64,000 nt of DNA from a virus. The DNA lies in IMG/VR virus record IMGVR_UViG_3300032323_003754, positions 1 through 64,000 of that record. One strand, 5' to 3'. Below the pieces are notes generated by a model that had not been told where the DNA came from, made no database searches, and saw only the letters and a program-made list of their open reading frames with translations. Shown piece by piece: positions 339 to 13,457 of this stretch. The position numbers and the translations under genes were made by a program. The stretch's first letter is position 1, and each line of letters starts with the position of its first letter.

Positions 339-878
339 ATGTCCCTTTTTGTTATAGAGGGAGCTAGAAAATCAGGTAAAACCCATTTCGTTAGTTCCCA
401 AAATTGGATTCCAGTATTTAAATTTGATTTTAACGGTGTTTATACATCATTAAATTTACCTCTTACTGGGGATAAAACACACCACATAGGATTGGGTAAA
501 GAACTAATGGTTCAACAATTAAATAGAGATGGATTTTTACCTGATCTAATGATGGATAGAGGTATTATAACAAATTCAGTTTGGGGTATATTAAATAACA
601 GGGTAACTAAAAAATCAGTTTATAAAGAACTTGATTATATGTTAGATAATGGCCTTTTTAAAAATACATTTTTTTTCCTTATAACAGGTACACATCCAGA
701 GAAAAGGGAAAAAGATGTGTGGGATAAAATGGACGAAAGAATACCAGAAGAAAGAGCACTTTTTCTTGAATTTGCAAATCACCTAATAGAAAAGGGGGTT
801 AATATACAAATCATTGAAAATAGATTTGATGCAGAATCCCTATCTAATTTTCAAACTATAATTAAGAATTTAAAATAA
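339..878 (+). CDS. P-loop nucleoside/nucleotide kinase-like protein
   Basis: Residues 8-15 read GARKSGKT, a clear Walker A motif right at the N-terminus. A DRG triplet at residues 73-75 recalls the DR motif of thymidylate/deoxynucleoside kinases. The length (179 residues) suits this kinase group, which phosphorylates nucleosides or nucleotides for phage DNA synthesis. I cannot identify the substrate, and another small P-loop phosphotransferase is possible. The stop codon overlaps the start of the asparagine synthetase gene by one base (TAATG), so the two are probably cotranslated. There is no Shine-Dalgarno sequence; the leader is A/T-rich. Confidence 0.6.
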   Translation: MSLFVIEGARKSGKTHFVSSQNWIPVFKFDFNGVYTSLNLPLTGDKTHHIGLGKELMVQQLNRDGFLPDLMMDRGIITNSVWGILNNRVTKKSVYKELDYMLDNGLFKNTFFFLITGTHPEKREKDVWDKMDERIPEERALFLEFANHLIEKGVNIQIIENRFDAESLSNFQTIIKNLK

Positions 879-2302
879 TGTGCGGAATATTAATTGCTAA
901 TAACCCATCAGATGAAAGAATAAAATCTATTACACATCGAGGTATAGAATATTCTACCCATTCTGACGAATCGGGTTTAACCCTTGTACATCACAGATTA
1001 CCTATTCAGACTGCAATTGGGGATAAATGGATCCAACCAATAGAGATATCAAAAGACCGCTATCTTTTATTTAATGGGGAGATTTTTAATTATCCCCTTG
1101 GATTTAGCTCAGATACTGAGTATTTAGTAAGTCTTTTTTCGTCCTTTGACTTTTCATCACTTGAAATGTTTAGCGCCATCTACGAGCCTTATATTAAGTC
1201 CTGGGATGGGTTTTGGGCTATATGTCTGGTTGACATGGCCAAAAAGGATGTGTTTTGCTTTACCGATCCCCTAGGAAAGAAATGTCTATACTATAACGAG
1301 ATGGGCGAGATATGCTCGGAGATGAAGGGATTGATTACTCGGGATTCTTTTATGGATAATGGTTTTATGGGAGGTGTGAGAAAATGGGGATATATTCCCA
1401 ATGAGTCTACCCCATTTTTAGACATTAAAAAGATAAAGCCTAATACATTTTATAAGTGGAATTTTTCTTCACCGTCATTCAAGCAAGAATATGGTCCCTA
1501 TTTCGCATTTAAACCATCCAAATTTGCATTTGAATCCGAAGATATGTTATTGGATTGGGTGTGGGAAAAAACTGAAGCAGCGACAAGAAATAGGCTCCTA
1601 AGCTTAGATTATCCTATATCCATATTACTATCAGGAGGATTAGACTCTTCTATTATAGGTGGTCTACTACTAAAGCTTGGCGCTGATGTTAGCTGGTACA
1701 CTATAAATAATGGACCAGATAACGATTATGTTAAGGAGTGTGAGTCTTATTGGGGAATAAAGGTAAATCGACTGGATTACTCAATGCAGGAAGATTCTCT
1801 AAATCTCCCAGATCTCTATTTTAAATGGAACGAAAGCCCAGTAGATCTAGGAAGTGTTATTCCACAGTATCTTTTGTTCGATGCAATTAAAAAAGGCACA
1901 GATACACGCATAGTATTATCGGGTGACGGAGCAGACGAAATGTTTGGTGGATACAGAAGAATTAACGAATATGATTCGCAGGCATCTGATGTTTTTCACG
2001 AGTTAACCTACTATCACCTTCCACGATTAGATAAAATGAGTATGGCTCATACACTAGAACTTAGAAATCCTTTTCTAAACCTGGAGCTTATGCAATTAGC
2101 ACTGTCTCTTCCTTTGGAAATGAGAAGAAATAAAACTATTCTTAAAAAGGCTTTTAAGGGTTTGGTTCCGGATTCTGTAATAGAAAGAAAAAAGCATCCC
2201 CTTAAGAACGAAAAGATAGTAAAAGATCCTATGGAATATAGGATAGAGTCTTTAAAATACTTCGGAGAAGGATTTAATCAATATAAAGAGGGTCTAAAAT
2301 AA
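878..2302 (+). CDS. asnB: Asparagine synthetase (glutamine-hydrolysing), class II amidotransferase
   Basis: This enzyme family makes asparagine from aspartate, ATP and glutamine. The N-terminal glutaminase domain begins MCGIL with the catalytic Cys2. It has HRG at 20-22, HHRLPI near 38-43, FNGEIFN near 65 and an SDTE motif. The synthetase domain carries the PP-loop SGGLDSS near 252, SGDGADEMFGGYRR near 347 and DKMSMAHTLELRNPFLN near 385. All the main catalytic motifs therefore look intact. At 474 residues it is shorter than E. coli AsnB (about 554), and the linker regions look trimmed. It could act on free aspartate or on another carboxylate such as a sugar acid or peptide. It overlaps the kinase-like gene upstream by one base and converges on the RimK-like gene, with a 9-base overlap at the 3' ends. 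Confidence 0.88.
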   Translation: MCGILIANNPSDERIKSITHRGIEYSTHSDESGLTLVHHRLPIQTAIGDKWIQPIEISKDRYLLFNGEIFNYPLGFSSDTEYLVSLFSSFDFSSLEMFSAIYEPYIKSWDGFWAICLVDMAKKDVFCFTDPLGKKCLYYNEMGEICSEMKGLITRDSFMDNGFMGGVRKWGYIPNESTPFLDIKKIKPNTFYKWNFSSPSFKQEYGPYFAFKPSKFAFESEDMLLDWVWEKTEAATRNRLLSLDYPISILLSGGLDSSIIGGLLLKLGADVSWYTINNGPDNDYVKECESYWGIKVNRLDYSMQEDSLNLPDLYFKWNESPVDLGSVIPQYLLFDAIKKGTDTRIVLSGDGADEMFGGYRRINEYDSQASDVFHELTYYHLPRLDKMSMAHTLELRNPFLNLELMQLALSLPLEMRRNKTILKKAFKGLVPDSVIERKKHPLKNEKIVKDPMEYRIESLKYFGEGFNQYKEGLK

Positions 2303-3778
2303 ATAAATTCCACCTAAGGCGTTACCCTTTGATTTAAGTGGTGAATAATCGGATGGTTCTTTAGTTAAAATAAAGGTCTTGCTTGAATCTACTACGAGAC
2401 CAGCCATTTCCATTAAAGCTCTATTAATTAGGATTGGGGTACTCTTGTTTATTCTATCAACGAGGGAGAATTTAACTTTTTTATACACCATTTCTCCAAA
2501 TTCTATATCTAGAAGAATAACCGGTCTTTTGTCAGTTTGATCTCCAACCTCTGCATAGGAGTATTCTATAATTCTGTTGCTATAGCTTTTACCCCCTATT
2601 GTCCAGTTTAGAAATCCATCAACTTCTTCTGAGAAATCAGCATGTAAAGAGCAAGCCAATGCCCCGTTTCCTGTGTCAAGTTTACCTACAAAATTTCCAA
2701 CTCCTTTAACCTCAAACATTTCTCTGAATCCTACCATTTTTCTAGGGTAGTTCCAGTTTTTCTTGTTTAAAATAAAATCTAGGATAATTCCAGTTACATC
2801 TAATCCAGTTGCTGATTCTATGCCATCTGTACCGGGGGAGGCATTCACTTCTAATACGTATGGTTGGCCTGTGTTTTTTTCTAATATGACATCAACACCG
2901 CACCATGAACATTCAGTAGCTTTTGCAGCTTCTATCGCTATATTTTCAATCTCCTCAGGTATTTCAACCGATTCTGCCTGACCACCAAGAGAAACGTTTG
3001 TTCTAAAATCGTTCTCTATCCTATTTCTTCTCATAGAGGCTATGATCGTATAATTATCTCCGTTGTATGAATTTTTGGTACCAACAACATGAATTCTTAG
3101 ATCGTAATCTGCTTCTATTTTTTCCTGCAGTATTAATTCAGTTTGTGGGGAAAGCTTCCATATTGTTTGTAAGGTAGAAAGCATTGATGCTATAGAATCT
3201 ACTTGGAAAACCCCTATTCCTTTTGTACCGCTTAGTAATTTCACTACGATAGGGAATGTTCCCCCCACTTTCTTTACTGCGTTTTCTATATCCTCTTCGG
3301 ATGATACCAAAGCTGTTTTAGGTGTTGATATTCCCTTTTCCTGCAATTTTTGTACAGTATCAAGCTTATCCTCACAAAGAAGAACAGATTTTAAAGAATT
3401 AACAGAGACAAATCCTAGAGATTCTAGCTTTTCAAAGAATTTAACTGCACCTGTAGAGTTAATAGAGGATCTTCTAGCCAATACAACAGTATTTCTAACA
3501 TCGATCTCATACTTATTCTGGCTTCCCTTATTTCTGATAAAAAAGCTTCCGGTCTCGGTTCTTTCTATTTCACCCTGTGATGTATTAATTATGATACACT
3601 TAAAACCTAATGATGAAGATTTTTGCATCATCTTTTTAACCGTAGGGGCTAAAGAATTTTTCTTTGATTCTAACTCAGTTGTTAGAATCACAAGAGATAT
3701 TGGCTTCTTGTTTGGAGCAGGAACTTTGTTAGCTCCGTGGAAAATAAAATCGTCCTCGTTTTCTGTTAGGTGATACAT
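2294..3778 (-). CDS. RimK-type glutamate ligase fused to RimB-like aspartyl protease domain
   Basis: Residues about 120-335 form an ATP-grasp domain of the RimK type, which adds glutamate to protein C-termini. The nucleotide and metal motifs are visible: PIVVKLLSGTKGIGV at 176-190, DLRIHVVG at 226-233, DFRTN at 257-261 and LEVNASPG at 309-316. Residues about 345-475 match the RimB/DUF785 'ATP-dependent zinc protease' family, a retropepsin-like fold, with KLDTGNGALACSLHA at 366-380 holding the Asp-Thr-Gly motif, then KRPVILLDIEFG and VDRINKSTPILINRAL. In bacteria RimB removes glutamates that RimK adds, so ligase and trimming protease appear to be joined in one chain. The usual RimB is a separate protein. 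The gene sits downstream of an acidic protein gene on the same strand, with a terminator between them. The substrate is unknown; ribosomal protein S6 of the host or a phage protein are candidates. Confidence 0.85.
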   Translation of the reverse strand: MYHLTENEDDFIFHGANKVPAPNKKPISLVILTTELESKKNSLAPTVKKMMQKSSSLGFKCIIINTSQGEIERTETGSFFIRNKGSQNKYEIDVRNTVVLARRSSINSTGAVKFFEKLESLGFVSVNSLKSVLLCEDKLDTVQKLQEKGISTPKTALVSSEEDIENAVKKVGGTFPIVVKLLSGTKGIGVFQVDSIASMLSTLQTIWKLSPQTELILQEKIEADYDLRIHVVGTKNSYNGDNYTIIASMRRNRIENDFRTNVSLGGQAESVEIPEEIENIAIEAAKATECSWCGVDVILEKNTGQPYVLEVNASPGTDGIESATGLDVTGIILDFILNKKNWNYPRKMVGFREMFEVKGVGNFVGKLDTGNGALACSLHADFSEEVDGFLNWTIGGKSYSNRIIEYSYAEVGDQTDKRPVILLDIEFGEMVYKKVKFSLVDRINKSTPILINRALMEMAGLVVDSSKTFILTKEPSDYSPLKSKGNALGGIYLF

Positions 3779-3795
3779 CTAAATCTTAATTGTTC

Positions 3796-3804
3796 TATAT
3801 ATCC
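3796..3804 (-). promoter_or_regulatory. Late-promoter-like GATATATAG element
   Basis: On the minus strand GGATATATAG lies about 18 bases upstream of the RimK-like gene start. The same word precedes several other genes in the window at similar spacing. It also lies just beyond the terminator of the acidic protein gene, so the ligase gene probably has its own promoter. Confidence 0.35.
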
Positions 3805-3812
3805 TCGGGAAA

Positions 3813-3838
3813 CAAAAAAGGGATCCTAAGATCCCTTT
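3813..3838 (-). terminator. Rho-independent terminator after the acidic protein gene
   Basis: Read on the minus strand, an 8-bp stem AAGGGATC / GATCCCTT with a TTAG loop is followed directly by a run of T. It lies about 20 bases past the stop codon of the minus-strand gene at 3858-4415. This is the clearest intrinsic terminator in the window. Confidence 0.8.
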
Positions 3839-3857
3839 ATATTGTATTATTTATTTT

Positions 3858-4415
3858 TTAGTTAAAAAATTGATTGAAAGAAGGATTTGCAATAGACTCT
3901 TGTTCTTCCTCTTCGTAATCTTCGGTTTCGTAAGTTTCCTCTTCTTCTTCCTCAGTTAATTCATCGTCTTCTTCGGTCAATTCATCGTCTTCTTCAGTTA
4001 ACTCTTCCTCTTCTTCGGTTAATTCTTCATCCTCGTCTTCTTCCATGTTATACTCATCGATTGTTGATTGGAATTCTTCATCATCCATTTCATAGATATC
4101 AGATCCTTCCTCTTGCTCTTCCTCTTCATTATCGGATTCTTCGTCAGATTCCATATCATCAAATTCCATATCTTCATCATCAGATTCTGAATCGTCATCC
4201 GAATCTAGATCGAACGCTTCCTCTGATCCTTCAGTTTCTTCGTTTTCGTCTTCAATTTCATCATCAGAATCCATTTCTATAGAATCTGCACCACCGTCAG
4301 TGTCCATATCCATGTCCATGTCATCAGATTCTATTTCAGTATTATTGTCTTGGCCAAGTGTTCCTTCAGTGTATTGTTTAGAAAACTCCTCAAAACTTAA
4401 GATCTTTTTTTCCAT
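3858..4415 (-). CDS. Highly acidic protein, possible prohead core/scaffold component
   Basis: The 185-residue protein consists almost wholly of Asp, Glu and Ser after a short ordinary N-terminus (MEKKILSFEEFSKQYTE). The N-terminus resembles the capsid-targeting propeptide of T4 internal proteins (MKTYQEFIAE). Four near-identical seven-residue ELTEEDD-type repeats occupy the C-terminal third, and the chain ends in the non-acidic NPSFNQFFN. T4 has an acidic prohead core protein (gp67), which is the best analogy, but I see no alignable similarity. It could instead be a DNA-mimic or a substrate of the neighbouring glutamate ligase. An exact TATAAATA lies 8 bases upstream of the ATG and an intrinsic terminator follows, so it may form its own transcript. 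Confidence 0.75.
   Translation of the reverse strand: MEKKILSFEEFSKQYTEGTLGQDNNTEIESDDMDMDMDTDGGADSIEMDSDDEIEDENEETEGSEEAFDLDSDDDSESDDEDMEFDDMESDEESDNEEEEQEEGSDIYEMDDEEFQSTIDEYNMEEDEDEELTEEEEELTEEDDELTEEDDELTEEEEEETYETEDYEEEEQESIANPSFNQFFN
3953..4036 (-). repeat. Four 21-bp tandem repeats encoding ELTEEDD-type heptads
   Basis: Four units of 21 bases each (starting at 3953, 3974, 3995 and 4016) encode seven-residue blocks of the type ELTEEDD or ELTEEEE. The units differ mainly at third positions and by D/E exchange. Expansion or contraction in steps of 21 bases would preserve the frame. Confidence 0.75.
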
Positions 4416-4431: not shown

Positions 4432-4461
4432 TCTATATATCTTTTTCTGCGAATATATTTA

Positions 4462-4716
4462 CTATTCTCCAGGTTCTCCCATTGTAGCAGCTGTCCCGGA
4501 TTCAGTAGCTCCGCGTCCCGGATAATCTATTTTAGATTGGTGTTTGAATATTGCATCGCCGTATCCAACATACTCGTATGGCTTCTCTAATTTTATCTCA
4601 TGGAAAGGGGATCTATCCTCCTTACTCATGTTTTTAGGATTCCATGGATCGTTTATAACTTTTAGAAATTCTTTGAATTCTAAAATTTCTCTCTTTTTAA
4701 CGTCTTTCTGATGCAT
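4462..4716 (-). CDS. Small unknown protein
   Basis: An 84-residue protein lies between the acidic protein and the 230-residue protein on the same strand, with only small gaps on each side. Its N-terminus contains EILEFKEFLKVIND, which loosely resembles the propeptide-like N-termini of its neighbours. The C-terminus is Gly/Thr-rich (GRGATESGTAATMGEPGE). There is no membrane segment. I do not recognise a family. Its position suggests that it belongs to the same virion or prohead group. Confidence 0.6.
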   Translation of the reverse strand: MHQKDVKKREILEFKEFLKVINDPWNPKNMSKEDRSPFHEIKLEKPYEYVGYGDAIFKHQSKIDYPGRGATESGTAATMGEPGE

Positions 4717-4730
4717 ATCGTTTTTTAATT

Positions 4731-5423
4731 TTAGTTTAGTCCTAATAGACCCATTATTCCTCCTCCTATTCCAGTATCACCAGTTTGGGTCTCTGATTTA
4801 GAAGCTTTAGCTATATCTTTTTCGGAAAATCTACCACCTCCAAATATATCTTTAAATGATGTACCTTCCCCACATACTACTCCTTCTATCTTGCGATTTA
4901 TCATTTGTGAAAATTCGGTTGAATTCAAATAGTTAGTAGCGGTTTCCCTAACAGTCGCTGCTGCAGTTCCAAGAATTCCGCTGTTCATGTTAATATCCAG
5001 TCCTAATCCCCTAGCCAATATGTCTATTGCTTTTTCTTCAAGGGTCTCTTTAAGACCATCCGCTATTGCTTGAACCCAATATTTACACGATCCTTGGCCG
5101 AAGTAATCTCCGATTTTTGTAAATTGGATTTGTTCAACTACGTTCTTTGCAAATTCAGTAAAAAATTCGTTATTATCAGGAAGACCCATTTTTTGTAATA
5201 ACCATCCGGCAGCATAGTTTTTCATTCTATCAGTAAAACCGTCCGAAAGGGTTGAACCTAGGCTTTTTATAAGGTCCCAGATTCCTTCATTGATCTCTTC
5301 TACAGTGTTCCCCTTAGATACCATATCATTGTAATGGGCTTCTAATCCCTCAACAAGTCTCAGGTATTGATCGTTGTTAATTGACTCATCTAATTTGAAC
5401 TGAGAATATTTGATAACTTTCAT
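4731..5423 (-). CDS. Unknown protein with capsid-targeting-like N-terminus
   Basis: The 230-residue protein starts MKVIKYSQFKLDES. This resembles the T4 capsid-targeting propeptide, and LDE fits the L/I-x-E cleavage preference of the T4 prohead protease gp21. The remainder is mixed helical sequence with a Gly-rich end (GGGIMGLLGLN). There is no transmembrane signal apart from short Ala-rich stretches. If the analogy holds, it is packed inside the capsid and processed there. No enzymatic motif is visible. A GATATATAA element lies about 20 bases upstream of the ATG. Confidence 0.7.
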   Translation of the reverse strand: MKVIKYSQFKLDESINNDQYLRLVEGLEAHYNDMVSKGNTVEEINEGIWDLIKSLGSTLSDGFTDRMKNYAAGWLLQKMGLPDNNEFFTEFAKNVVEQIQFTKIGDYFGQGSCKYWVQAIADGLKETLEEKAIDILARGLGLDINMNSGILGTAAATVRETATNYLNSTEFSQMINRKIEGVVCGEGTSFKDIFGGGRFSEKDIAKASKSETQTGDTGIGGGIMGLLGLN

Positions 5424-5440: not shown

Positions 5441-5450
5441 TATATATCTC
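5441..5450 (-). promoter_or_regulatory. Late-promoter-like GAGATATATA element
   Basis: On the minus strand GAGATATATA lies 17 bases upstream of the ATG at 5423. It matches the recurring GATATATA element of this window. A divergent copy on the plus strand serves the gene at 5501. Confidence 0.35.
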
Positions 5451-5471: not shown

Positions 5472-5480
5472 GATATATAG
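5472..5480 (+). promoter_or_regulatory. Late-promoter-like GATATATAG element
   Basis: GATATATAG lies about 21 bases upstream of the TTG start at 5501. With the minus-strand copy at 5441-5450 it forms a compact divergent promoter region of under 80 bases. Confidence 0.35.
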
Positions 5481-5500: not shown

Positions 5501-6106
5501 TTGAAACATATATTCTCTTATAAGGATCTATTTGAAAGCACCTCGGCAGGATCCCAGGATAGGGGTACTGCAGATATATCCCCATTTAAATTTGCTATTA
5601 ATTATGATCCTAGGCTGGGTTATACCAAAAAAGATTTTTCGATGGATCTTATTGAAATTTACAAGGGTATGTCTAAAAGAGAGAGATCTGAGTTAATGAA
5701 TGTCGTTTTTAAATCGGGAGGAATATTTAGAATTTCTGAAATACCAGATCTTTCCCAGGAAACGGTTGATAGAATCATAAAAGAGGTTGAAGCACACCTC
5801 GATAGTAAATCTGTTTATAAAATGCAGGTACTTCCTGATGGATATATTCTTTGCTATGAGGGATTAAAGCATAAGGGTAGATTCTGTGATGTTTATTATT
5901 CACCGACGGAATCCAAGGTTAAAATATCATATACGGATACCTACCCAGAGATGGAAAATGTTATAATTTCTTTGGAATCCTTTAATCCTTCATCGGTAAA
6001 TATAGAATCGGACGATTTCGAATCAACAAAGAATAAGTGTGATAACTTTGTAGGAACTAACCAAATTATAGCATCGAAAGATAGTCCCGATAATTATTCA
6101 CTATAA
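5501..6106 (+). CDS. Unknown protein with capsid-targeting-like N-terminus, TTG start
   Basis: The protein starts at a TTG codon. No in-frame ATG lies nearby upstream, and starting here gives MKHIFSYKDLFES, which matches the N-terminal style of neighbouring genes and contains LFE, an L-x-E site like those cut by T4 gp21. The 201-residue protein is a mixed alpha/beta soluble sequence with no motif that I recognise. It is transcribed away from the minus-strand gene at 4731-5423, and its 3' end overlaps the convergent gene at 6066 by 41 bases. It is likely a virion internal protein, by analogy only. Confidence 0.65.
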   Translation: MKHIFSYKDLFESTSAGSQDRGTADISPFKFAINYDPRLGYTKKDFSMDLIEIYKGMSKRERSELMNVVFKSGGIFRISEIPDLSQETVDRIIKEVEAHLDSKSVYKMQVLPDGYILCYEGLKHKGRFCDVYYSPTESKVKISYTDTYPEMENVIISLESFNPSSVNIESDDFESTKNKCDNFVGTNQIIASKDSPDNYSL

Positions 6107-6940: not shown

Positions 6941-7519
6941 ATGAGCCCCTTTCTTATAATAGCTTACTACACTACAGGAAACCATTACGAAGATCTCTCG
7001 GAAAATCTTAAAAAATCTTGTAACGATTTTAATCTCCCCCTGGTTTTAAAGCCAATCCAAAACCTAGGATCCTGGGAAAAGAATACACACTATAAGGCAG
7101 ACTTCATTTATGAGTGTCTCAATACGTATAATCAAAACCTAGTTTATGTGGATGTTGATGCAGTCTTTAGAAAATACCCAACCCTCTTTGGAGAATTAGA
7201 TTGTGATATTGCATTCCGGACAGAGAACTTTAAATGGAGAAAGAACGAGGCTTTAAGCGGTACTATATTTCTAAATAATAACGATAAGGTAAGAACCCTA
7301 GTTAAAAATTGGATTTCTATAAACGAATCTACCCCTGCTGTTAGAAATTCCCCCATGACCTGGGAACAAGCTAATATGCAAAAGGCAGTTCAATTTGACC
7401 GGGGTATTAATTATTATAATCTCCCACCGGAATACACGTACATCTTTGATCACACTAAAAGAATGTACCCAAATATAGAACCAATCATTGAGCACTTTCA
7501 GGCATCTAGAAAGATCTGA
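6941..7519 (+). CDS. GT-A fold glycosyltransferase-like protein
   Basis: The 192-residue protein resembles the nucleotide-diphospho-sugar transferase group. The stretch NLVYVDVDAVF carries a DxD motif at 71-73, which in GT-A enzymes binds the metal and nucleotide sugar. ALSGTIFLNNN, which follows, resembles the acceptor-side strand of such enzymes. It is short for a complete transferase but has no obvious break. It is the first gene of the plus-strand glycan cluster and is followed after 24 bases by another transferase-like gene. The donor sugar is unknown. Confidence 0.65.
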   Translation: MSPFLIIAYYTTGNHYEDLSENLKKSCNDFNLPLVLKPIQNLGSWEKNTHYKADFIYECLNTYNQNLVYVDVDAVFRKYPTLFGELDCDIAFRTENFKWRKNEALSGTIFLNNNDKVRTLVKNWISINESTPAVRNSPMTWEQANMQKAVQFDRGINYYNLPPEYTYIFDHTKRMYPNIEPIIEHFQASRKI

Positions 7520-7527
7520 TATATAAA
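7519..7527 (+). promoter_or_regulatory. Late-promoter-like TATATAAA element
   Basis: TGATATATAAA overlaps the stop codon of the preceding gene and lies about 17 bases upstream of the ATG at 7544. The rest of the leader is almost pure A. Confidence 0.3.
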
Positions 7528-7543
7528 AAATAATAAAAAAAAA

Positions 7544-8665
7544 ATGTCCTTCGAAAAAATAAGAAGACTCAGGGTTTCTTTCGGTAACTTTTTAAAAGAA
7601 CCGGAAAAAGAAAAAGAAAATATCAAAAGCGTTGAGATTAAAAATAGACCCCTGAGCAGTATGACCCCTACCATTATTAGTTACTATTCAGATTTCAATG
7701 ATACCAAGTATTATGAGAATTTTGCTAATATCCTAACAGAAAGATGTAAATCCTTTAATGTACATCATGATATAAGTGAGCTACCGTCTAGAGGTAATTA
7801 TGGAGTTAACTGCCTAATGAAGCCCGAATTTATATTGAGTAAAATAAAAGAATACAAAAAACCTTTAATCTGGATGGACTGCGATACTGATTTTAGAGAA
7901 CCTTTCCCACAGTTTAACGAAGTTAAGGAAGATATAGGTATGGCAACGCATAGCGGGGATCTTGACGGAATCAAAGCATCCCCTTTATATTTCAATTATA
8001 CCAAAGGTGCTTTTAGAATAATAAGAGAATGGGTAGTCCATTGTAGAGCTTGTTATGACCAAGGAATAGTCGAACTTGATCATGATGCGTTAAAGCATTA
8101 TGTTCTAGATTTTTTAAATGGATCATATACATCTTATTTATTAACACACAACTGGAATGATTTTGTGCATGGACGTTATATCTGGAATGGGAATTCAAGG
8201 GTTGATGGAAAGATGCAAATACACAAAAAAGTTGGTGTAAGCGACGATGTGAGAAGATCTTATTCTAACGGAGTTAAATACATTAAATTGTTTTTTGAAT
8301 CTGAAAATGAAAAAGTATTTGAAAGTGCCTTGAATTTTTTAAACAAGTTTTCTAACAGATCTAGATTATCCTTTAACTTTTCTCCTAAGCTTCTATCTGT
8401 ATCTAAAAACAACGGGTACTTTAATTCACTTGAAATAGAATCAGGTGGATCCGTATATTTCGATGATATCGATTTTGATAATAATACTATTGGTAAAACC
8501 AATGTTTTAATTTCGGTCAATAACGTTAAAGACATAGAAAATGAATGGGATCTTAAAATACTATCAATGGTAGAAGGAGATGTTAATCCTCTTTATGAAC
8601 TAAATTTTAATGATGATGGTAAAGGCGGTATTAAAATAAAAACATCTAGAAAAATATGGATATGA
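7544..8665 (+). CDS. GT-A fold glycosyltransferase-like protein with C-terminal extension
   Basis: Residues about 40-240 look like a GT-A transferase: ISYYSDFNDTKYYENFA near the N-terminus and WMDCDTDF at 110-117 with the DxD metal site, followed by a segment rich in His and aromatic residues. Residues about 245-373 form a separate acidic beta-rich tail without a recognised motif, which could bind a partner or glycan. The N-terminal 38 residues are basic and may also be an extension. It overlaps the fucosyltransferase-like gene by 10 bases, consistent with one operon. The leader is almost entirely A and lacks a Shine-Dalgarno sequence. Confidence 0.65.
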   Translation: MSFEKIRRLRVSFGNFLKEPEKEKENIKSVEIKNRPLSSMTPTIISYYSDFNDTKYYENFANILTERCKSFNVHHDISELPSRGNYGVNCLMKPEFILSKIKEYKKPLIWMDCDTDFREPFPQFNEVKEDIGMATHSGDLDGIKASPLYFNYTKGAFRIIREWVVHCRACYDQGIVELDHDALKHYVLDFLNGSYTSYLLTHNWNDFVHGRYIWNGNSRVDGKMQIHKKVGVSDDVRRSYSNGVKYIKLFFESENEKVFESALNFLNKFSNRSRLSFNFSPKLLSVSKNNGYFNSLEIESGGSVYFDDIDFDNNTIGKTNVLISVNNVKDIENEWDLKILSMVEGDVNPLYELNFNDDGKGGIKIKTSRKIWI

Positions 8666-9513
8666 TAAAAGGAATAGGTATGCCTTTCCCTGCTGAATAC
8701 TCCTCCTGCTCAAATATTAAACCTAATTTATTTTCTTGGACTAGTGGGGAATCTGACTTACATGTTTATATAGATGATAAGATAATAGATGGATTATCTA
8801 CACCTAGACATGATTTAAAATTCGGATGGCTTTGTGAATCCCCTGCAATAGCACAGGATATTCATAGTGTAATTAGGGAAAATCCACAAAGATTTAAAAA
8901 CAAATATGCTGGTATATTTACCTGTGATGAAAGCTTACTGGTAGATCCATTTTTTATCTATGCTCCTCCTGGATCTAATCTTCCATGGGTTAAACCTGAT
9001 GAAATGAATCTCTATGAAAAATCTAAGGTTTGTTCTATGATATCCTCCCCGAAAGCAAGAACACAGGGACATCAGTATAGATTAGAGATAGCTGGATTAC
9101 TTAAAAATAAATTGGATCTCTTCGGAGGTGCACACGGGTCTCCTAGAATTGGCGAGGGGTCCGGACCTAATCAAGACTGGTGGAGGTCTAAGTTACCTGC
9201 AATAAAAGACTATATGTTTTCTGTTGTTTTTGAGAACACCACACACGACAAATACTACACCGAAAAAATAACAGACTGCTTTGCAACGGGTACTATTCCT
9301 ATTTACTGGGGCACAAGAAAGATAGTAGAAGATTTTAATCCTGATGGAATTATATTCTATAACTCTTCTTTTTCTATTGACGATCTAAATTCTAATTTGT
9401 ATTACAATAAAATGAACGCAATAAAAGAGAATTTAGAAATAGTAAAATCTATGAAATCATCAGATGATATTATTTACGAAAAAATAAAAAAAATAAGGAA
9501 TGCAAAAAGATAA
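8656..9513 (+). CDS. GT10-type alpha-fucosyltransferase-like protein
   Basis: Residues about 185-235 carry the C-terminal signature of glycosyltransferase family 10: FEN at 192-194, YTEK at 201-204, then CFATGTIPIYWG at 208-219, equivalent to the donor-binding motif of bacterial and animal alpha-1,3/1,4-fucosyltransferases. GDP-fucose is the donor in this family. The same cluster encodes the two enzymes that make GDP-L-fucose, which strengthens the call. The N-terminal half is divergent, as expected for the acceptor-binding part. The acceptor is unknown. It overlaps both neighbours by 10-14 bases. Confidence 0.8.
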   Translation: MDMIKGIGMPFPAEYSSCSNIKPNLFSWTSGESDLHVYIDDKIIDGLSTPRHDLKFGWLCESPAIAQDIHSVIRENPQRFKNKYAGIFTCDESLLVDPFFIYAPPGSNLPWVKPDEMNLYEKSKVCSMISSPKARTQGHQYRLEIAGLLKNKLDLFGGAHGSPRIGEGSGPNQDWWRSKLPAIKDYMFSVVFENTTHDKYYTEKITDCFATGTIPIYWGTRKIVEDFNPDGIIFYNSSFSIDDLNSNLYYNKMNAIKENLEIVKSMKSSDDIIYEKIKKIRNAKR

Positions 9514-10138
9514 AACAATATTGGTAACATCTTTTTATATTCCCGAAAGAGAAGACAGGTTAAGGGAATTAGAATATTGTATTGATAGAAATAATAAAAA
9601 CACACTAATAGATTTAATAGTTCTTGTCGTAGAAGAGGGAACCCCTGAAAATCTAATTCCTGCTATAAAAAAGGCAAAAATAGAATGGGTCTCTAAAAGG
9701 CCAACATATCAGGATCTTTTTAATATTGCTCTGAACAATATAGAGGAATCAAAAGGATTCATGATAATAGCCAACAGCGATATCTTTTATATGAAAGAGG
9801 ATATTGCTAAGATGAAAGAAAGAATAGAGGATAAAGATGTCTTTGCTCTTTCCCGTTGGGAATTTAATTTTAGAAAACCTCATACACATCATGACACTTG
9901 GGATAGTCAAGACAGCTGGATTTTTAAAAATACGATTCTATCTGGTAACTATGATATAAAACTTGGAATTCCTGGATGCGACAATAAAATAGCATATGAA
10001 TTACAAGAAGCTGGACACACGATTAAAAACCCTTCTAAGTCTATAAGATCCTATCATTTTCATAAATCGGAATATAGGACATACGTTGAAGATGATAGAA
10101 TAGAAGAACCTTATTTATTTATTAATACCGAAGAATGA
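9500..10138 (+). CDS. Glycosyltransferase-like protein (GT-A type, family unclear)
   Basis: The 212-residue protein begins with a strand ILVTSFYIP. It has MIIANSDIF at 88-96, where the Asp could correspond to a DxD-type site, and ends in a conserved-looking RSYHFHKSEYRTY segment. These features and the position among glycosyltransferases support a transferase, but the family is not clear to me. It overlaps the preceding gene by 14 bases and the next by 4 (ATGA), so it is translationally coupled. Confidence 0.55.
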   Translation: MQKDKTILVTSFYIPEREDRLRELEYCIDRNNKNTLIDLIVLVVEEGTPENLIPAIKKAKIEWVSKRPTYQDLFNIALNNIEESKGFMIIANSDIFYMKEDIAKMKERIEDKDVFALSRWEFNFRKPHTHHDTWDSQDSWIFKNTILSGNYDIKLGIPGCDNKIAYELQEAGHTIKNPSKSIRSYHFHKSEYRTYVEDDRIEEPYLFINTEE

Positions 10139-10791
10139 GCAAAATAGATTTAAAAAGGATAACTGCAGTTTGCATAGATGGAAGACCTTACGATGAAGCA
10201 AGGTACGGGAGATATAATATTATTCTTAATTTCTTTCTTGCAAATATAGAATTTGGTTCGGTAAAAATGATAACAACACGCAATCCTGGTATAGAAGGAG
10301 TTTCGCATATTAAAATAGATGAGTTTGATATATCGGGTTATTCCAAATTCTGTCTGCATGAATTAACAAGACATGTTGATACAGAATTCTGTCTTATCTT
10401 CCAGGACGATGGATTTATTGTTAATCCAAACGCATGGAATGATTTATTTTATGATTATGATTATATAGGATCTCCCTGGCCACTTTACATGGGCTGGCCA
10501 AAAGAAGGACAACAAGTAGGTAACGGAGGATTTTCACTCAGAAGTAAAAAACTCCTCGAATTTACTAAGACATTCGCTGAACATTCCACACAGAACGAAG
10601 ATACCTATATAGTTTCAGATAGAAGGGAATCAGTAATTAATGCTGGATTAAAAATAGCTCCTGTTGAAATTGCTAGATTATTTTCAGTAGAAAACCCAAT
10701 TGATAATGAGCATAATATCAATACATGTTTCGGATTTCATAGCAAAAACAAGACAGAAGACGCGATCGAAAAAATAAACACACATGAGTAG
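10135..10791 (+). CDS. DUF5672-like glycosyltransferase
   Basis: The protein has the pattern I associate with DUF5672 transferases: FQDDG at 89-93, YIGSPWP at 110-116, VGNGGFSLRS at 128-137, NEDTYI at 154-159 and a late FGFH. The DD pair is the probable metal-binding site, and GNGGFSLRS is the segment shared with many GT-A enzymes. Sugar and acceptor are unknown. It overlaps the genes on both sides by 4-8 bases within the glycan operon. Confidence 0.7.
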   Translation: MSKIDLKRITAVCIDGRPYDEARYGRYNIILNFFLANIEFGSVKMITTRNPGIEGVSHIKIDEFDISGYSKFCLHELTRHVDTEFCLIFQDDGFIVNPNAWNDLFYDYDYIGSPWPLYMGWPKEGQQVGNGGFSLRSKKLLEFTKTFAEHSTQNEDTYIVSDRRESVINAGLKIAPVEIARLFSVENPIDNEHNINTCFGFHSKNKTEDAIEKINTHE

Positions 10792-11551
10792 AAAAATAAT
10801 AGAATGCATGCCATTTTTTAATGAACTAGATTTATTAGAAATGAGACTTGAAATAACCTCAGATTATGTAGATTATTGGGTAATTAGTGAATCTAATAGA
10901 ACTTTTTCTGAAATAGAAAAACCACTATACTTAAAAGAAAATTTAGATAAAAGATTTTCTAAATTTAAAGACCGTATAATAAGAGTTGAATATGAATGTA
11001 AATCTGGTCCTTGGTGGAATGAATTCGGTTCAAGAAACTGTTTAGGAAAATATGTATTAGAAAACTTTAATCAGGATGATTTAATAGTTCTAGCCGACTG
11101 TGATGAAATCCCAGATTATCGTAAAATAGATTTCAATTCTCAGTTTCCAGCAATAGTTGAGACTAAGGGTTATTATTACTATTTGAATTGCAAACAAAAT
11201 GAGAATTTTAGAATAGTATCAATATTCCCGGTATCCTATTTAAATGAGATAGAAACGTACAGGATGAGAGCATGTGCTGGTATGGATGTTCCCGTAATAG
11301 AAAATGCTGGATGGCATTGGAGTTTTTTAGGTGGTGCAGAAAAAATATCAGAAAAAATAAAAGCCTATGCACATCAAGACATGAATATCCCAGAATATTC
11401 CGATGTTGACAAAATAGAAAAGAGACTATCAGATCTTAGTGATGTATTTGATAGATCTTTAGGGTATAAGATAGTTGATATAGACGACACATTCCCTGAT
11501 TATGTTGTAAACAACCAAGAAAAATTATCGAATTTTATATTTAAAAAATGA
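10784..11551 (+). CDS. GT17-like glycosyltransferase
   Basis: The sequence matches glycosyltransferase family 17 in its landmarks: CMPFFNELDLLEMRL at 8-22, ADCDEIP at 104-110 as the DxD metal site, and GWHWSFLGG at 176-184 followed by EKISEKIKAYAH. Characterised GT17 members transfer beta-1,4-linked N-acetylglucosamine in eukaryotes, while bacterial and viral members are mostly untested, so the sugar is not certain here. The length of 255 residues covers the catalytic domain without a membrane anchor. It is coupled to both neighbours by short overlaps. Confidence 0.78.
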   Translation: MSRKIIECMPFFNELDLLEMRLEITSDYVDYWVISESNRTFSEIEKPLYLKENLDKRFSKFKDRIIRVEYECKSGPWWNEFGSRNCLGKYVLENFNQDDLIVLADCDEIPDYRKIDFNSQFPAIVETKGYYYYLNCKQNENFRIVSIFPVSYLNEIETYRMRACAGMDVPVIENAGWHWSFLGGAEKISEKIKAYAHQDMNIPEYSDVDKIEKRLSDLSDVFDRSLGYKIVDIDDTFPDYVVNNQEKLSNFIFKK

Positions 11552-12204
11552 ATTTAGAATGTGTAAAAATTCTTGAATCTATAAACGATTTAGATACCAA
11601 GGATAAATTAATAGAATGGGTTAGATCAACAGCCGGATCAAGTAACGTTGATTATTTTATGTGCGAAAAATCTGGGGGATTAAGATTACAACAGGTCCCT
11701 GAAGAATATGCTGCTGTTCTTTTCGAGATTAAATCCTTAAATCCAAAGTCATATTTAGAAATAGGAATAGGAAACGGGGGATCCTGGATGACTTGCTCTT
11801 ATTTTTTAAGACACAGTCTTGAAAAATCCAGAGCAGTTGATAATTTAGCATATTATCAGGCAATAGATCAAAAAATAGAAGAGATAGAATTTGTCGAAAG
11901 CTTTTTAAGATCCACGATAAATGATGTTTCTTTTTTTAATTCCGATTCTAAAATTTTTCTAGAGGGTCACGATGAAAAATATGATGTTATTTTCATAGAC
12001 GGAGATCACAGTTACGAGGGGGTTAAAAAAGATTTTTTAAAATGCCTAAGAAATATAAACCCGGAAGGTGCTATGATTTTTCATGATATAGCTTCCGTGG
12101 GTGCTCCTGGGGTTGTACAATTCTGGGAGGAAGTCAAGACCCAATACAAAAACAGGGAATTTATTCATAGCAATACCTGTGGTATGGGAATAATTTATTT
12201 TTAA
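11548..12204 (+). CDS. Class I SAM-dependent methyltransferase
   Basis: Residues 70-78 read LEIGIGNGG, the glycine-rich SAM-binding motif I. FIDGDHSYEGVKKDF at 149-163 and GAMIFHDI further on match the Methyltransf_24 group, which includes sugar and polysaccharide O-methyltransferases related to cephalosporin hydroxylase-like proteins. In a glycan cluster it most likely methylates a sugar, but protein or lipid substrates cannot be excluded. It overlaps the GT17-like gene by 4 bases. Confidence 0.78.
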   Translation: MNLECVKILESINDLDTKDKLIEWVRSTAGSSNVDYFMCEKSGGLRLQQVPEEYAAVLFEIKSLNPKSYLEIGIGNGGSWMTCSYFLRHSLEKSRAVDNLAYYQAIDQKIEEIEFVESFLRSTINDVSFFNSDSKIFLEGHDEKYDVIFIDGDHSYEGVKKDFLKCLRNINPEGAMIFHDIASVGAPGVVQFWEEVKTQYKNREFIHSNTCGMGIIYF

Positions 12205-12210
12205 AAACAA

Positions 12211-12822
12211 ATGGCAACATTAACAGTAGTAGTAGCATCTTATAAGTACGGACATCTAGCAGCTCATTGTTTAGAAAGTTTGCAGTCTCAGTCAGTCTAT
12301 CCAGACGAGGTGCTATTCGTCGATGATGGTGTTGGTGATTGTTTACATCTGCCTAAAATTTATAAAGATGTCAAATATACATTCAGAGAAAAAAACCTAG
12401 GCGTTATAGATAACTTTCAGGATATGCTTTCGAAGGTTAAAACCGATAAATGTATGTTTTTAGGTGCAGATAACTGGTTAAGATCTAATGCTATAGAAAT
12501 CTTACTAAAACCTAAGACCGACATAGTTTGTTATGACATAATATTAACAGGACCTAAAAAGGAAGATATAGCGCATAACTATGGATATCAAAAAAAGATC
12601 TATGGCGATTATTATTGGTCAAGATTTGGTCAACATCACGGATCAATGGTTTACAATACTGAGATGGCAAAATCTGTTGGTGGATACAGAGGACATAACG
12701 GAAGAAACTCAAACGAAGATGAAAATCTATGGTCAGATCTATTAAAAGCCGGTGCAACAGTGAAACACATAAAACAAGGATTACTTTACTACAGAAGACA
12801 CCATCAAAATTATAATCAGTAA
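12211..12822 (+). CDS. Family 2 glycosyltransferase
   Basis: This is a compact GT2 enzyme of 203 residues. It opens with TVVVASYKYGHLAAHCLESL, the typical first strand and helix. VDDG at 37-40 binds the nucleotide, GADN at 85-88 takes the DxD position, and NEDENLW at 168-174 lies where the catalytic base motif (ED) is expected. No membrane segment is present. The donor is unknown. It follows the methyltransferase gene by 6 bases and precedes the FkbM gene by 5. Confidence 0.85.
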   Translation: MATLTVVVASYKYGHLAAHCLESLQSQSVYPDEVLFVDDGVGDCLHLPKIYKDVKYTFREKNLGVIDNFQDMLSKVKTDKCMFLGADNWLRSNAIEILLKPKTDIVCYDIILTGPKKEDIAHNYGYQKKIYGDYYWSRFGQHHGSMVYNTEMAKSVGGYRGHNGRNSNEDENLWSDLLKAGATVKHIKQGLLYYRRHHQNYNQ

Positions 12823-12827
12823 ATTAT

Positions 12828-13457
12828 ATGTACAGTCAATTAGGAGAAGACGAGATAATATTAAAATATTTCTCGGATTTTAAAGAAAAATACGGCTCAT
12901 TTCTATCTAATAATATTTTAGATATAGGAGCTAATGATGGGATTACCATATCAAATACCAGAGCCCTTATATTAAAATATGGGGAGATAAAAGGATACTT
13001 TGTAGAACCTAATCCTATATGTTTTGAAAAGTTAAGAGAATTATACGGTGAATCTCATAATATTTACAATTTTGCAATATCCGATAGTGAAGGTAGAATG
13101 GAAATGTATTGCAACGGCAGTCATTTATCTAGTTCTGATAATGGATTATTATCAACCCTTGTTTTAGAAGAAACTAAAAGATGGGGAGATGAAAAATGGG
13201 ATCTAGTAGAGGTTGATGTTAAAAGATATCCATTCGGCGAAATAAACTTTGATTTTATATCAATTGATACCGAGGGTATGGACGAAACCATTCTTTTTCA
13301 AATTGATCTATTAAAAACGTGGATGCTTTGTATAGAATGGAATTCAAATCAGGAAAGAAAAAACACAATAGATAATTACTGTAAAAAATTCTCCATGAAT
13401 CTTCTGCATGAAAATGACATAAATCTTATTTATACCAAAACACCTAATGGGTTTTAA
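12828..13457 (+). CDS. FkbM-family methyltransferase
   Basis: The start MYSQLGEDEIILKYF and the motif LDIGANDGI at 31-39 are typical of FkbM-type SAM-dependent methyltransferases, followed by FVEPNP and FDFISIDTEGMDE. These enzymes often O-methylate sugars in capsule, lipopolysaccharide or glycoprotein clusters. Together with the other methyltransferase at 11548 it could methylate or cap the glycan built here. The gene ends just before the GDP-fucose synthesis pair. Confidence 0.85.
   Translation: MYSQLGEDEIILKYFSDFKEKYGSFLSNNILDIGANDGITISNTRALILKYGEIKGYFVEPNPICFEKLRELYGESHNIYNFAISDSEGRMEMYCNGSHLSSSDNGLLSTLVLEETKRWGDEKWDLVEVDVKRYPFGEINFDFISIDTEGMDETILFQIDLLKTWMLCIEWNSNQERKNTIDNYCKKFSMNLLHENDINLIYTKTPNGF

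What the first reader, a model, noticed from the sequence alone, without database searches (positions are those of the whole stretch)
2294..4415. Glutamate ligase and glutamate protease joined in one protein, next to a hyper-acidic protein
The sequence shows a RimK-type ATP-grasp domain followed by a RimB-like Asp-Thr-Gly domain in one chain. The gene just upstream on the same strand encodes a protein made almost wholly of Glu and Asp. In bacteria RimK adds C-terminal glutamates to ribosomal protein S6 and RimB removes them. A single polypeptide could therefore set tail length by itself. Inference: the target is host S6, the acidic protein, or a capsid protein.
Basis: partly seen in the sequence, partly recalled or inferred. 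Interest (0 to 1): 0.72.

Follow-up and report, generated by a model that had tools for sequence, protein, structure and literature searches.

The report
Phage head-cargo glutamate ligase–protease
A widespread but little-studied enzyme of large phages joins a glutamate-adding domain to a polyglutamate-cutting domain, sits among genes for proteins packed inside the virus head, and in most relatives carries a T4-type 'pack me into the head' signal, so it may be delivered into the bacterium with the DNA.

Summary
ORF 2294-3778(-) is one 494-aa chain: a RimK-type glutamate-ligase ATP-grasp domain, then a RimB/RloA-type retropepsin domain. A 51% Asp+Glu ORF (3858-4415) lies 79 bp upstream. Across 53 dereplicated relatives the main ligase catalytic residues and the protease Asp are invariant, as are three Lys/Arg that bind polyglutamate in RloA.

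The domain order RimK-RimB is the reverse of bacterial RimBK. It was seen in marine phage metagenomes in 2008, when the second domain was 'DUF785'. New here:
(1) In the sister clade, 27 of 37 fusions begin with a strict T4-style capsid-targeting sequence (aromatic-x-x-aromatic-[LIV]-x-E|A/S); it occurs in 0 of 15,502 internal windows.
(2) Many of these genes lie in or near gp21/gp23-type head modules, among other proteins with this signal.
(3) The YerA41 homologue is particle-associated by published mass spectrometry.
(4) Acidic genes are nearly confined to the fusion's flank, in two arrangements, and 23 of 24 end in an aromatic pair like the core of that signal.

The window's own fusion lacks the signal; its acidic partner carries the core at both ends. 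Best reading: a head-associated polyglutamate ligase/protease, probably injected. Its substrate is unknown. A new variant of a known kind.

The parts
2294..3778 (-). RimK-RimB fusion gene, 494 aa
3698..3778 (-). N-terminal tail, residues 1-27, low-confidence in the model (pLDDT <50 for 1-23); this is where the sister clade carries the capsid-targeting sequence; the window's own tail lacks it
2762..3697 (-). RimK-like glutamate-ligase region (pre-ATP-grasp plus ATP-grasp), residues 28-339; invariant K138, K180, R228, R259, N261, D296, E310, N312
2357..2740 (-). RimB/RloA-like retropepsin domain, residues 347-474
2669..2677 (-). Catalytic Asp-Thr-Gly, residues 368-370; K366, R418 and R442 align with the polyglutamate-contacting K46, R114 and R137 of RloA
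   Evidence: PMC12239564
3858..4415 (-). Acidic protein gene, 185 aa, 51% Asp+Glu, net charge about -92
4383..4409 (-). Acidic protein N-terminal core motif KKILSFEEF (aromatic-x-x-aromatic)
3861..3881 (-). Acidic protein C-terminal motif SFNQFFN
3817..3838 (-). Terminator-like hairpin between the acidic gene and the fusion
   Evidence: 4 found in the region, 2.3 expected by chance
3796..3803 (-). GATATATA box about 25 bp upstream of the fusion start
4434..4441 (-). GATATATA box about 26 bp upstream of the acidic gene
4462..4716 (-). 84-aa protein, with the same kind of motif near its N-terminus (REILEFKEFL)
4731..5423 (-). 230-aa protein starting MKVIKYSQFKLDES; relatives start MVIRSYSQFISES, a canonical targeting-like sequence
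5501..6106 (+). 201-aa protein starting KHIFSYKDLFES; relatives start MRRIFNFNQFVNES, a canonical targeting-like sequence

Best explanation
The fusion is a head-associated phage enzyme. Its first domain joins glutamates in an ATP-dependent way to an acceptor (a protein C-terminus or a growing poly-alpha-glutamate chain). Its second domain, working as a dimer, cuts polyglutamate. In most of the family examined an N-terminal signal like that of T4 internal proteins takes the enzyme into the prohead core, the gp21-type protease removes the signal, and the enzyme is then injected with the DNA to act on a host target, with ribosomal protein S6 the first candidate. In the window's clade the enzyme lacks this signal. 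There the neighbouring acidic protein carries the motif core at both ends and may bring the enzyme in, because polyglutamate-binding proteases have a positively charged channel. Shown by sequence and model: both folds, invariant active sites, the signal in relatives, and the head-gene context. Inferred: catalysis, packaging in this phage, injection, the acidic carrier role and the target.
For: Active sites invariant in 53 of 53 relatives (the Thr of DTG is Ser in one). Folds match RimK, including the RimK-RpsF complex, and RloA. Three polyglutamate-contact residues are conserved. A strict targeting sequence occurs in 27 of 37 sister-clade fusions, and most of the rest are near-matches by eye; it is absent from 15,502 internal windows and present in 4.5% of other genes in these loci. 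It matches the mapped T4 determinants: residues 4 and 7 (both aromatic in IPIII), then I/L-x-E cleavage (T4 IPII and IPIII). A gp21-type protease is present in 4 of 4 long relatives tested. The major capsid gene lies 4-8 kb away in 17 of 55 representatives. The YerA41 homologue is particle-associated by published mass spectrometry. Neighbouring genes on the acidic side carry the same signal in relatives. 23 of 24 acidic genes flank the fusion within 400 bp, in two arrangements.
Against: The window's own fusion and its 11 clade-mates have no targeting sequence. YerA41 particles also contained many replication enzymes, so carry-over is possible, and its homologue has no obvious signal. In clade 2 the fusion lies among replication-type genes, in one case about 100 kb from the protease gene. 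The D. psychrophila RimBK hybrid showed protease but no S6 ligase activity. The protein misses the S6-ligase equivalog model (121 against 331 bits). The counts are not phylogenetically independent, and the 80 loci fetched are the closest of 547.
Confidence: 0.45

Rival explanations
1. The enzyme works inside the prohead during assembly: it adds or trims glutamates on a phage head, core or internal protein (possibly the acidic neighbour), changing core charge or release from the scaffold. It is not an injected effector.
For: Head-module context and targeting sequence; acidic genes concentrated beside the fusion; T4 also has an acidic core protein, gp67 (44% Asp+Glu).
Against: No head-module protein inspected ends in a Glu run: the capsid protein ends GSLV or TGIA, the acidic protein FFN. 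Glu runs in the acidic proteins are mostly too short for RimB or RloA. Clade 3 has no acidic neighbour.
Confidence: 0.25
2. An ordinary cytosolic takeover enzyme, made during infection and not packaged, that changes host S6 glutamylation and so translation, as proposed by Monier 2008.
For: RimK family membership and fold, including the RimK-RpsF complex. No targeting sequence in the window's clade. Middle expression class in YerA41.
Against: Does not explain the targeting sequence in most relatives, the head-gene context, the flanking signal-bearing genes or particle association. No S6-ligase equivalog match.
Confidence: 0.2
3. The product is free poly-alpha-glutamate, a polyanion that acts inside the head or cell and is made by RimK stimulated by its fused RimB domain; no protein is modified.
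For: Published: RimB stimulates poly-alpha-glutamate synthesis by RimK in Pseudomonas (abstract). Co-occurrence with a polyanionic protein.
Against: No direct evidence here; it does not explain why a cutting domain is strictly conserved.
Confidence: 0.1

Closest known systems
Marine phage RimK with C-terminal DUF785 (Monier et al. 2008, PMC2530865)
   Same: Same domain order, same kind of source (T4-like phage contigs)
   Different: Only the domains and a translation idea were reported; no protease identity, targeting sequence, acidic partner or virion evidence
Bacterial RimBK hybrid (Desulfotalea psychrophila; PMC11957791)
   Same: Same two domains in one chain; its protease activity on polyglutamylated S6 was measured
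   Different: RimB is N-terminal there; here it is C-terminal, so a separate fusion event is likely
RimK/RimB pair of Pseudomonas
   Same: ATP-grasp glutamate ligase plus retropepsin that trims polyglutamate
   Different: Two genes, no head-targeting signal, S6 target shown
RloA periplasmic retropepsins (9G58, 9G59; PMC12239564)
   Same: Among the closest solved folds of the C-terminal domain; shared K46, R114 and R137 positions
   Different: Secreted, with a separate ATP-grasp gene
T4 internal head proteins (IPI-III, Alt)
   Same: N-terminal signal (in IPII and IPIII aromatic-x-x-aromatic-I-x-E|A/S) cut by the gp21 protease; Alt is a packaged, injected enzyme
   Different: No T4 internal protein is known as a glutamate ligase or polyglutamate protease
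T4 gp67 acidic prohead core protein
   Same: Small, very acidic head protein
   Different: Acidic mainly in its C-terminal half; no aromatic-pair end motif noted; no homology shown

Membership tests
RimK-family alpha-L-glutamate ligase (TIGR00768) | Score above curated cut-off | tested here: met
   156.1 against 143.4 bits
RimK-family alpha-L-glutamate ligase (TIGR00768) | ATP-grasp catalytic Lys, Asp, Glu, Asn | tested here: met
   invariant in 53 relatives
30S S6--L-glutamate ligase (NF007764) | Score above equivalog cut-off | tested here: not met
   121.2 against 331 bits
30S S6--L-glutamate ligase (NF007764) | Adds Glu to S6 | not testable with these tools
   needs biochemistry
RimB/RloA retropepsin (PF05618) | Curated score for the window's own sequence | tested here: not met
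   24.5 against 27 bits; family profile against RloA E 5.9e-9
RimB/RloA retropepsin (PF05618) | Retropepsin fold with DTG | tested here: met
RimB/RloA retropepsin (PF05618) | Polyglutamate-binding Lys/Arg | tested here: met
   K366, R418, R442 invariant
RimB/RloA retropepsin (PF05618) | Homodimer, polyglutamate cleavage | not testable with these tools
   monomer model only
Bacterial RimBK hybrid | RimB N-terminal, RimK C-terminal | tested here: not met
   order reversed
T4-type capsid-targeted internal protein | N-terminal aromatic-x-x-aromatic-[LIV]-x-E|A/S on the window's own fusion | tested here: not met
   0 of 12 in the window's clade
T4-type capsid-targeted internal protein | Same signal on sister-clade fusions | tested here: met
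   27 of 37 strict
T4-type capsid-targeted internal protein | gp21-type protease in the genome | tested here: met
   4 of 4 long relatives; the window's own record is an 83-kb fragment and was not searched for it
T4-type capsid-targeted internal protein | Found in virions | tested here: inconclusive
   published for the YerA41 homologue; not for this phage

The most novel reading that the evidence does not exclude
Large phages pack a self-contained polyglutamate writer-eraser enzyme into the capsid and inject it, so that host protein glutamylation (S6 or another target) is reset before any phage gene is expressed; in one clade a hyper-acidic protein with head-docking ends serves as its carrier or regulator.
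Probability: 0.3. Interest if true: 0.8.

Novelty: new variant of a known kind. Interest (0 to 1): 0.6.

Why it matters
Only two bacterial proteins are described as known to be polyglutamylated (RpsF and Legionella SdeA, PMC12239564). A phage family with a combined ligase and protease, with relatives in 547 viral contigs and probably delivered with the DNA, would give a new example of an injected modifying enzyme beside T4 Alt. The two-domain chain is a compact system for asking what polyglutamylation does in bacteria, and the targeting sequence makes the packaging claim directly testable.

Tried and rejected
A glutathione-synthetase or D-Ala ligase reading (names given to some homologues) was rejected: RimK models and structures score far higher. 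'Acidic protein as polyglutamate substrate of the protease domain' was lowered: long Glu runs are not conserved. Phage-encoded S6 as target: none found in 15 records. 'Operon of two genes' is doubtful: terminator-like hairpin and separate boxes. Host origin: the bacterial scan gave 4 hits, three of them fusions on short MAG contigs and one single-domain ATP-grasp; the scan patterns were narrow, so absence from bacteria is not shown, and Monier 2008 mentions a C-terminal DUF785 in Halobacteria. The Gp23 Pfam search on the window's own record found nothing and rang in no control either; the record begins at window position 1, short of where relatives carry the capsid gene. The structure search with the whole chain listed ATP-grasp proteins, so the C-terminal domain was modelled alone. 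A paper search pairing S6 modification with jumbo phages found nothing.
Full report
What is there. The window is 64 kb of an 83-kb virus record. ORF 2294-3778 on the minus strand encodes 494 residues; ORF 3858-4415, 79 bp upstream on the same strand, encodes 185 residues with 35 Asp and 60 Glu.

Domains. Residues 46-336 match the RimK family above its curated cut-off (TIGR00768, 156.1 against 143.4 bits) but fall far short of the S6-ligase equivalog model. An AlphaFold2 model from 48 sequences (pLDDT 87, pTM 0.78) matches RimK crystal structures best (7qys E 9e-23; the RimK-RpsF complex 5zk6 E 2e-22). The C-terminal part modelled alone (pLDDT 92) matches 2pma and the RloA proteases 9g59 and 9g58, then HIV proteases. 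The family profile matches RloA at E 5.9e-9, whereas the single sequence stays just under the PF05618 cut-off.

Catalytic residues. Over 53 dereplicated fusions K138, K180, R228, R259, N261, D296, E310, N312, D368, G370 and N371 do not vary; T369 is Ser once; E219 differs in two. RloA contacts polyglutamate through K46, R92, R114 and R137, and only R92 is not shared with RimB (PMC12239564). Counting along the HMMER alignment, by hand, places K366, R418 and R442 on K46, R114 and R137; all three are invariant. This argues that both activities are kept under selection. It does not prove them.

How widespread. A profile scan of IMG/VR found 547 contigs with a relative; the best 80 were fetched and nearly all are full-length fusions. 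Contigs reach 430 kb. Named phages with the full chain are Yersinia YerA41 and GN1 and Pelagibacter Mosig. The capsid proteins of two relatives are closest to those of jumbo phages such as the Prevotella Lak phages. Bacterial genomes gave only 4 hits.

Prior knowledge. Monier et al. 2008 (PMC2530865) found phage RimK homologues with a C-terminal DUF785 in ocean metagenomes and suggested an effect on translation; they also mention that order in Halobacteria. Little et al. 2025 (PMC11957791) showed that RimB is a retropepsin that cuts runs of about six or more Glu, stimulates poly-alpha-glutamate synthesis, and exists as a RimB-RimK hybrid in bacteria, the opposite domain order. The fusion as such is therefore known; its identity as a writer-eraser pair and its head context are not described in the papers found here.

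The targeting signal. T4 internal proteins IPII and IPIII begin MKTYQEFIAEA. Published work puts targeting on residues 4 and 7 and processing on residues 8 and 10, with cleavage after L/I-x-E (PMC9026906). In the sister clade to the window's, 27 of 37 fusions start with the strict pattern aromatic-x-x-aromatic-(x)-[LIV]-x-E-[ASGT], for example MKIIKSYEDFLNEA, MMAGKVLDFWSFLNEA and MKNRLAYFNEFVINEA; most of the other ten are near-matches by eye. The pattern occurs in none of 15,502 internal windows of the same proteins and in 4.5% of the other genes of these loci, many of which look like genuine head cargo. A tree puts the window's 12-member clade, all without the signal, beside this clade with strong support. 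Four of four long relatives encode a gp21-type protease.

Head context. In clade 3 the major capsid gene (phrog_138) lies about 4-5.5 kb upstream, and the fusion is flanked by other proteins with the same signal. In relatives of the window the capsid gene lies 7-8 kb away, and the genes next to the acidic gene start with the signal or its core (window 4462-4716, 4731-5423, 5501-6106). YerA41's homologue is marked as particle-associated (PMC7354516 Table 3 and the record's annotation), though that preparation contained many replication enzymes too. I matched g112 of that table to the record's YerA41_066 by gene order after the ribonucleotide reductase genes.

The acidic partner. In 53 representative loci, 23 of 134 genes within 400 bp of the fusion are strongly acidic against 1 of 752 farther away (relatedness makes the p-value too small). 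The window's clade has it upstream on the same strand (in one member about 1 kb away, reversed); clade 2 has it about 200 bp downstream on the other strand, ending in RVLSFKDFFN-like motifs. 23 of 24 acidic proteins have an aromatic pair near the C-terminus. In the window's clade, whose enzyme lacks the signal, the acidic protein also has the core at its N-terminus (KKILSFEEF). This complementarity suggests, but does not show, that the acidic protein links the enzyme to the head core. As a protease substrate it is doubtful, because long Glu runs are not conserved.

Expression. GATATATA occurs nine times in the window, most of them within 45 bp upstream of gene starts (binomial p about 3e-14 if eight of nine), including the fusion, the acidic gene and two neighbours. 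Similar boxes precede the fusion in many members of clades 1 and 2. It looks like a phage promoter element; calling it 'late' would be inference. A hairpin with a T-run separates the two genes.

Verdict. A real, apparently intact, widespread phage polyglutamate ligase-protease in head-gene company. Packaging is well supported by sequence for the sister clade and inferred for this phage. The substrate is open: host S6, a head protein, or free polyglutamate.

Noticed in passing
window 3796-3803, 4434-4441, 5441-5448, 5472-5479, 7518, 16892, 43486, 55901, 60302: GATATATA boxes, most of them just upstream of gene starts: a probable phage promoter element, also upstream of the fusion in relatives.
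   Followed up: partly
window 878-2302: Glutamine-dependent asparagine-synthase-like gene (MCGIL start, PF00733) convergent with the fusion and kept beside it in relatives; its glutaminase half would release glutamate next to a glutamate ligase.
   Followed up: no
L103:6872-8953; L104:7208-9121: A single ORF of about 640-690 aa holds the gp21-type protease domain, apparently fused to a scaffold-like region.
   Followed up: no
L104:12061-17766; L038:11198-14890: Clusters of five to eight genes whose products start with the T4-like targeting signal: an array of putative internal head proteins of unknown function.
   Followed up: no
L022:10448-11494: A non-acidic 348-aa protein near the head module also ends in the motif (LLSFEDFLSNRK).
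   Followed up: no
L011 (Pelagibacter phage Mosig) 4551-4760 and 9956-11341: The phage encodes a ribosomal protein S21 about 5 kb from its RimK-RimB fusion; the fusion starts PFKNYLEEA after a short leader, a targeting-like signal.
   Followed up: no
L012:82-1131: Methylophilales phage Melnitz has a single-domain RimK starting with KFSQFITEE, also targeting-like.
   Followed up: no
window 6941-13457: Block of genes that looks like glycosyltransferases and surface-sugar enzymes, by eye from the sequence.
   Followed up: no
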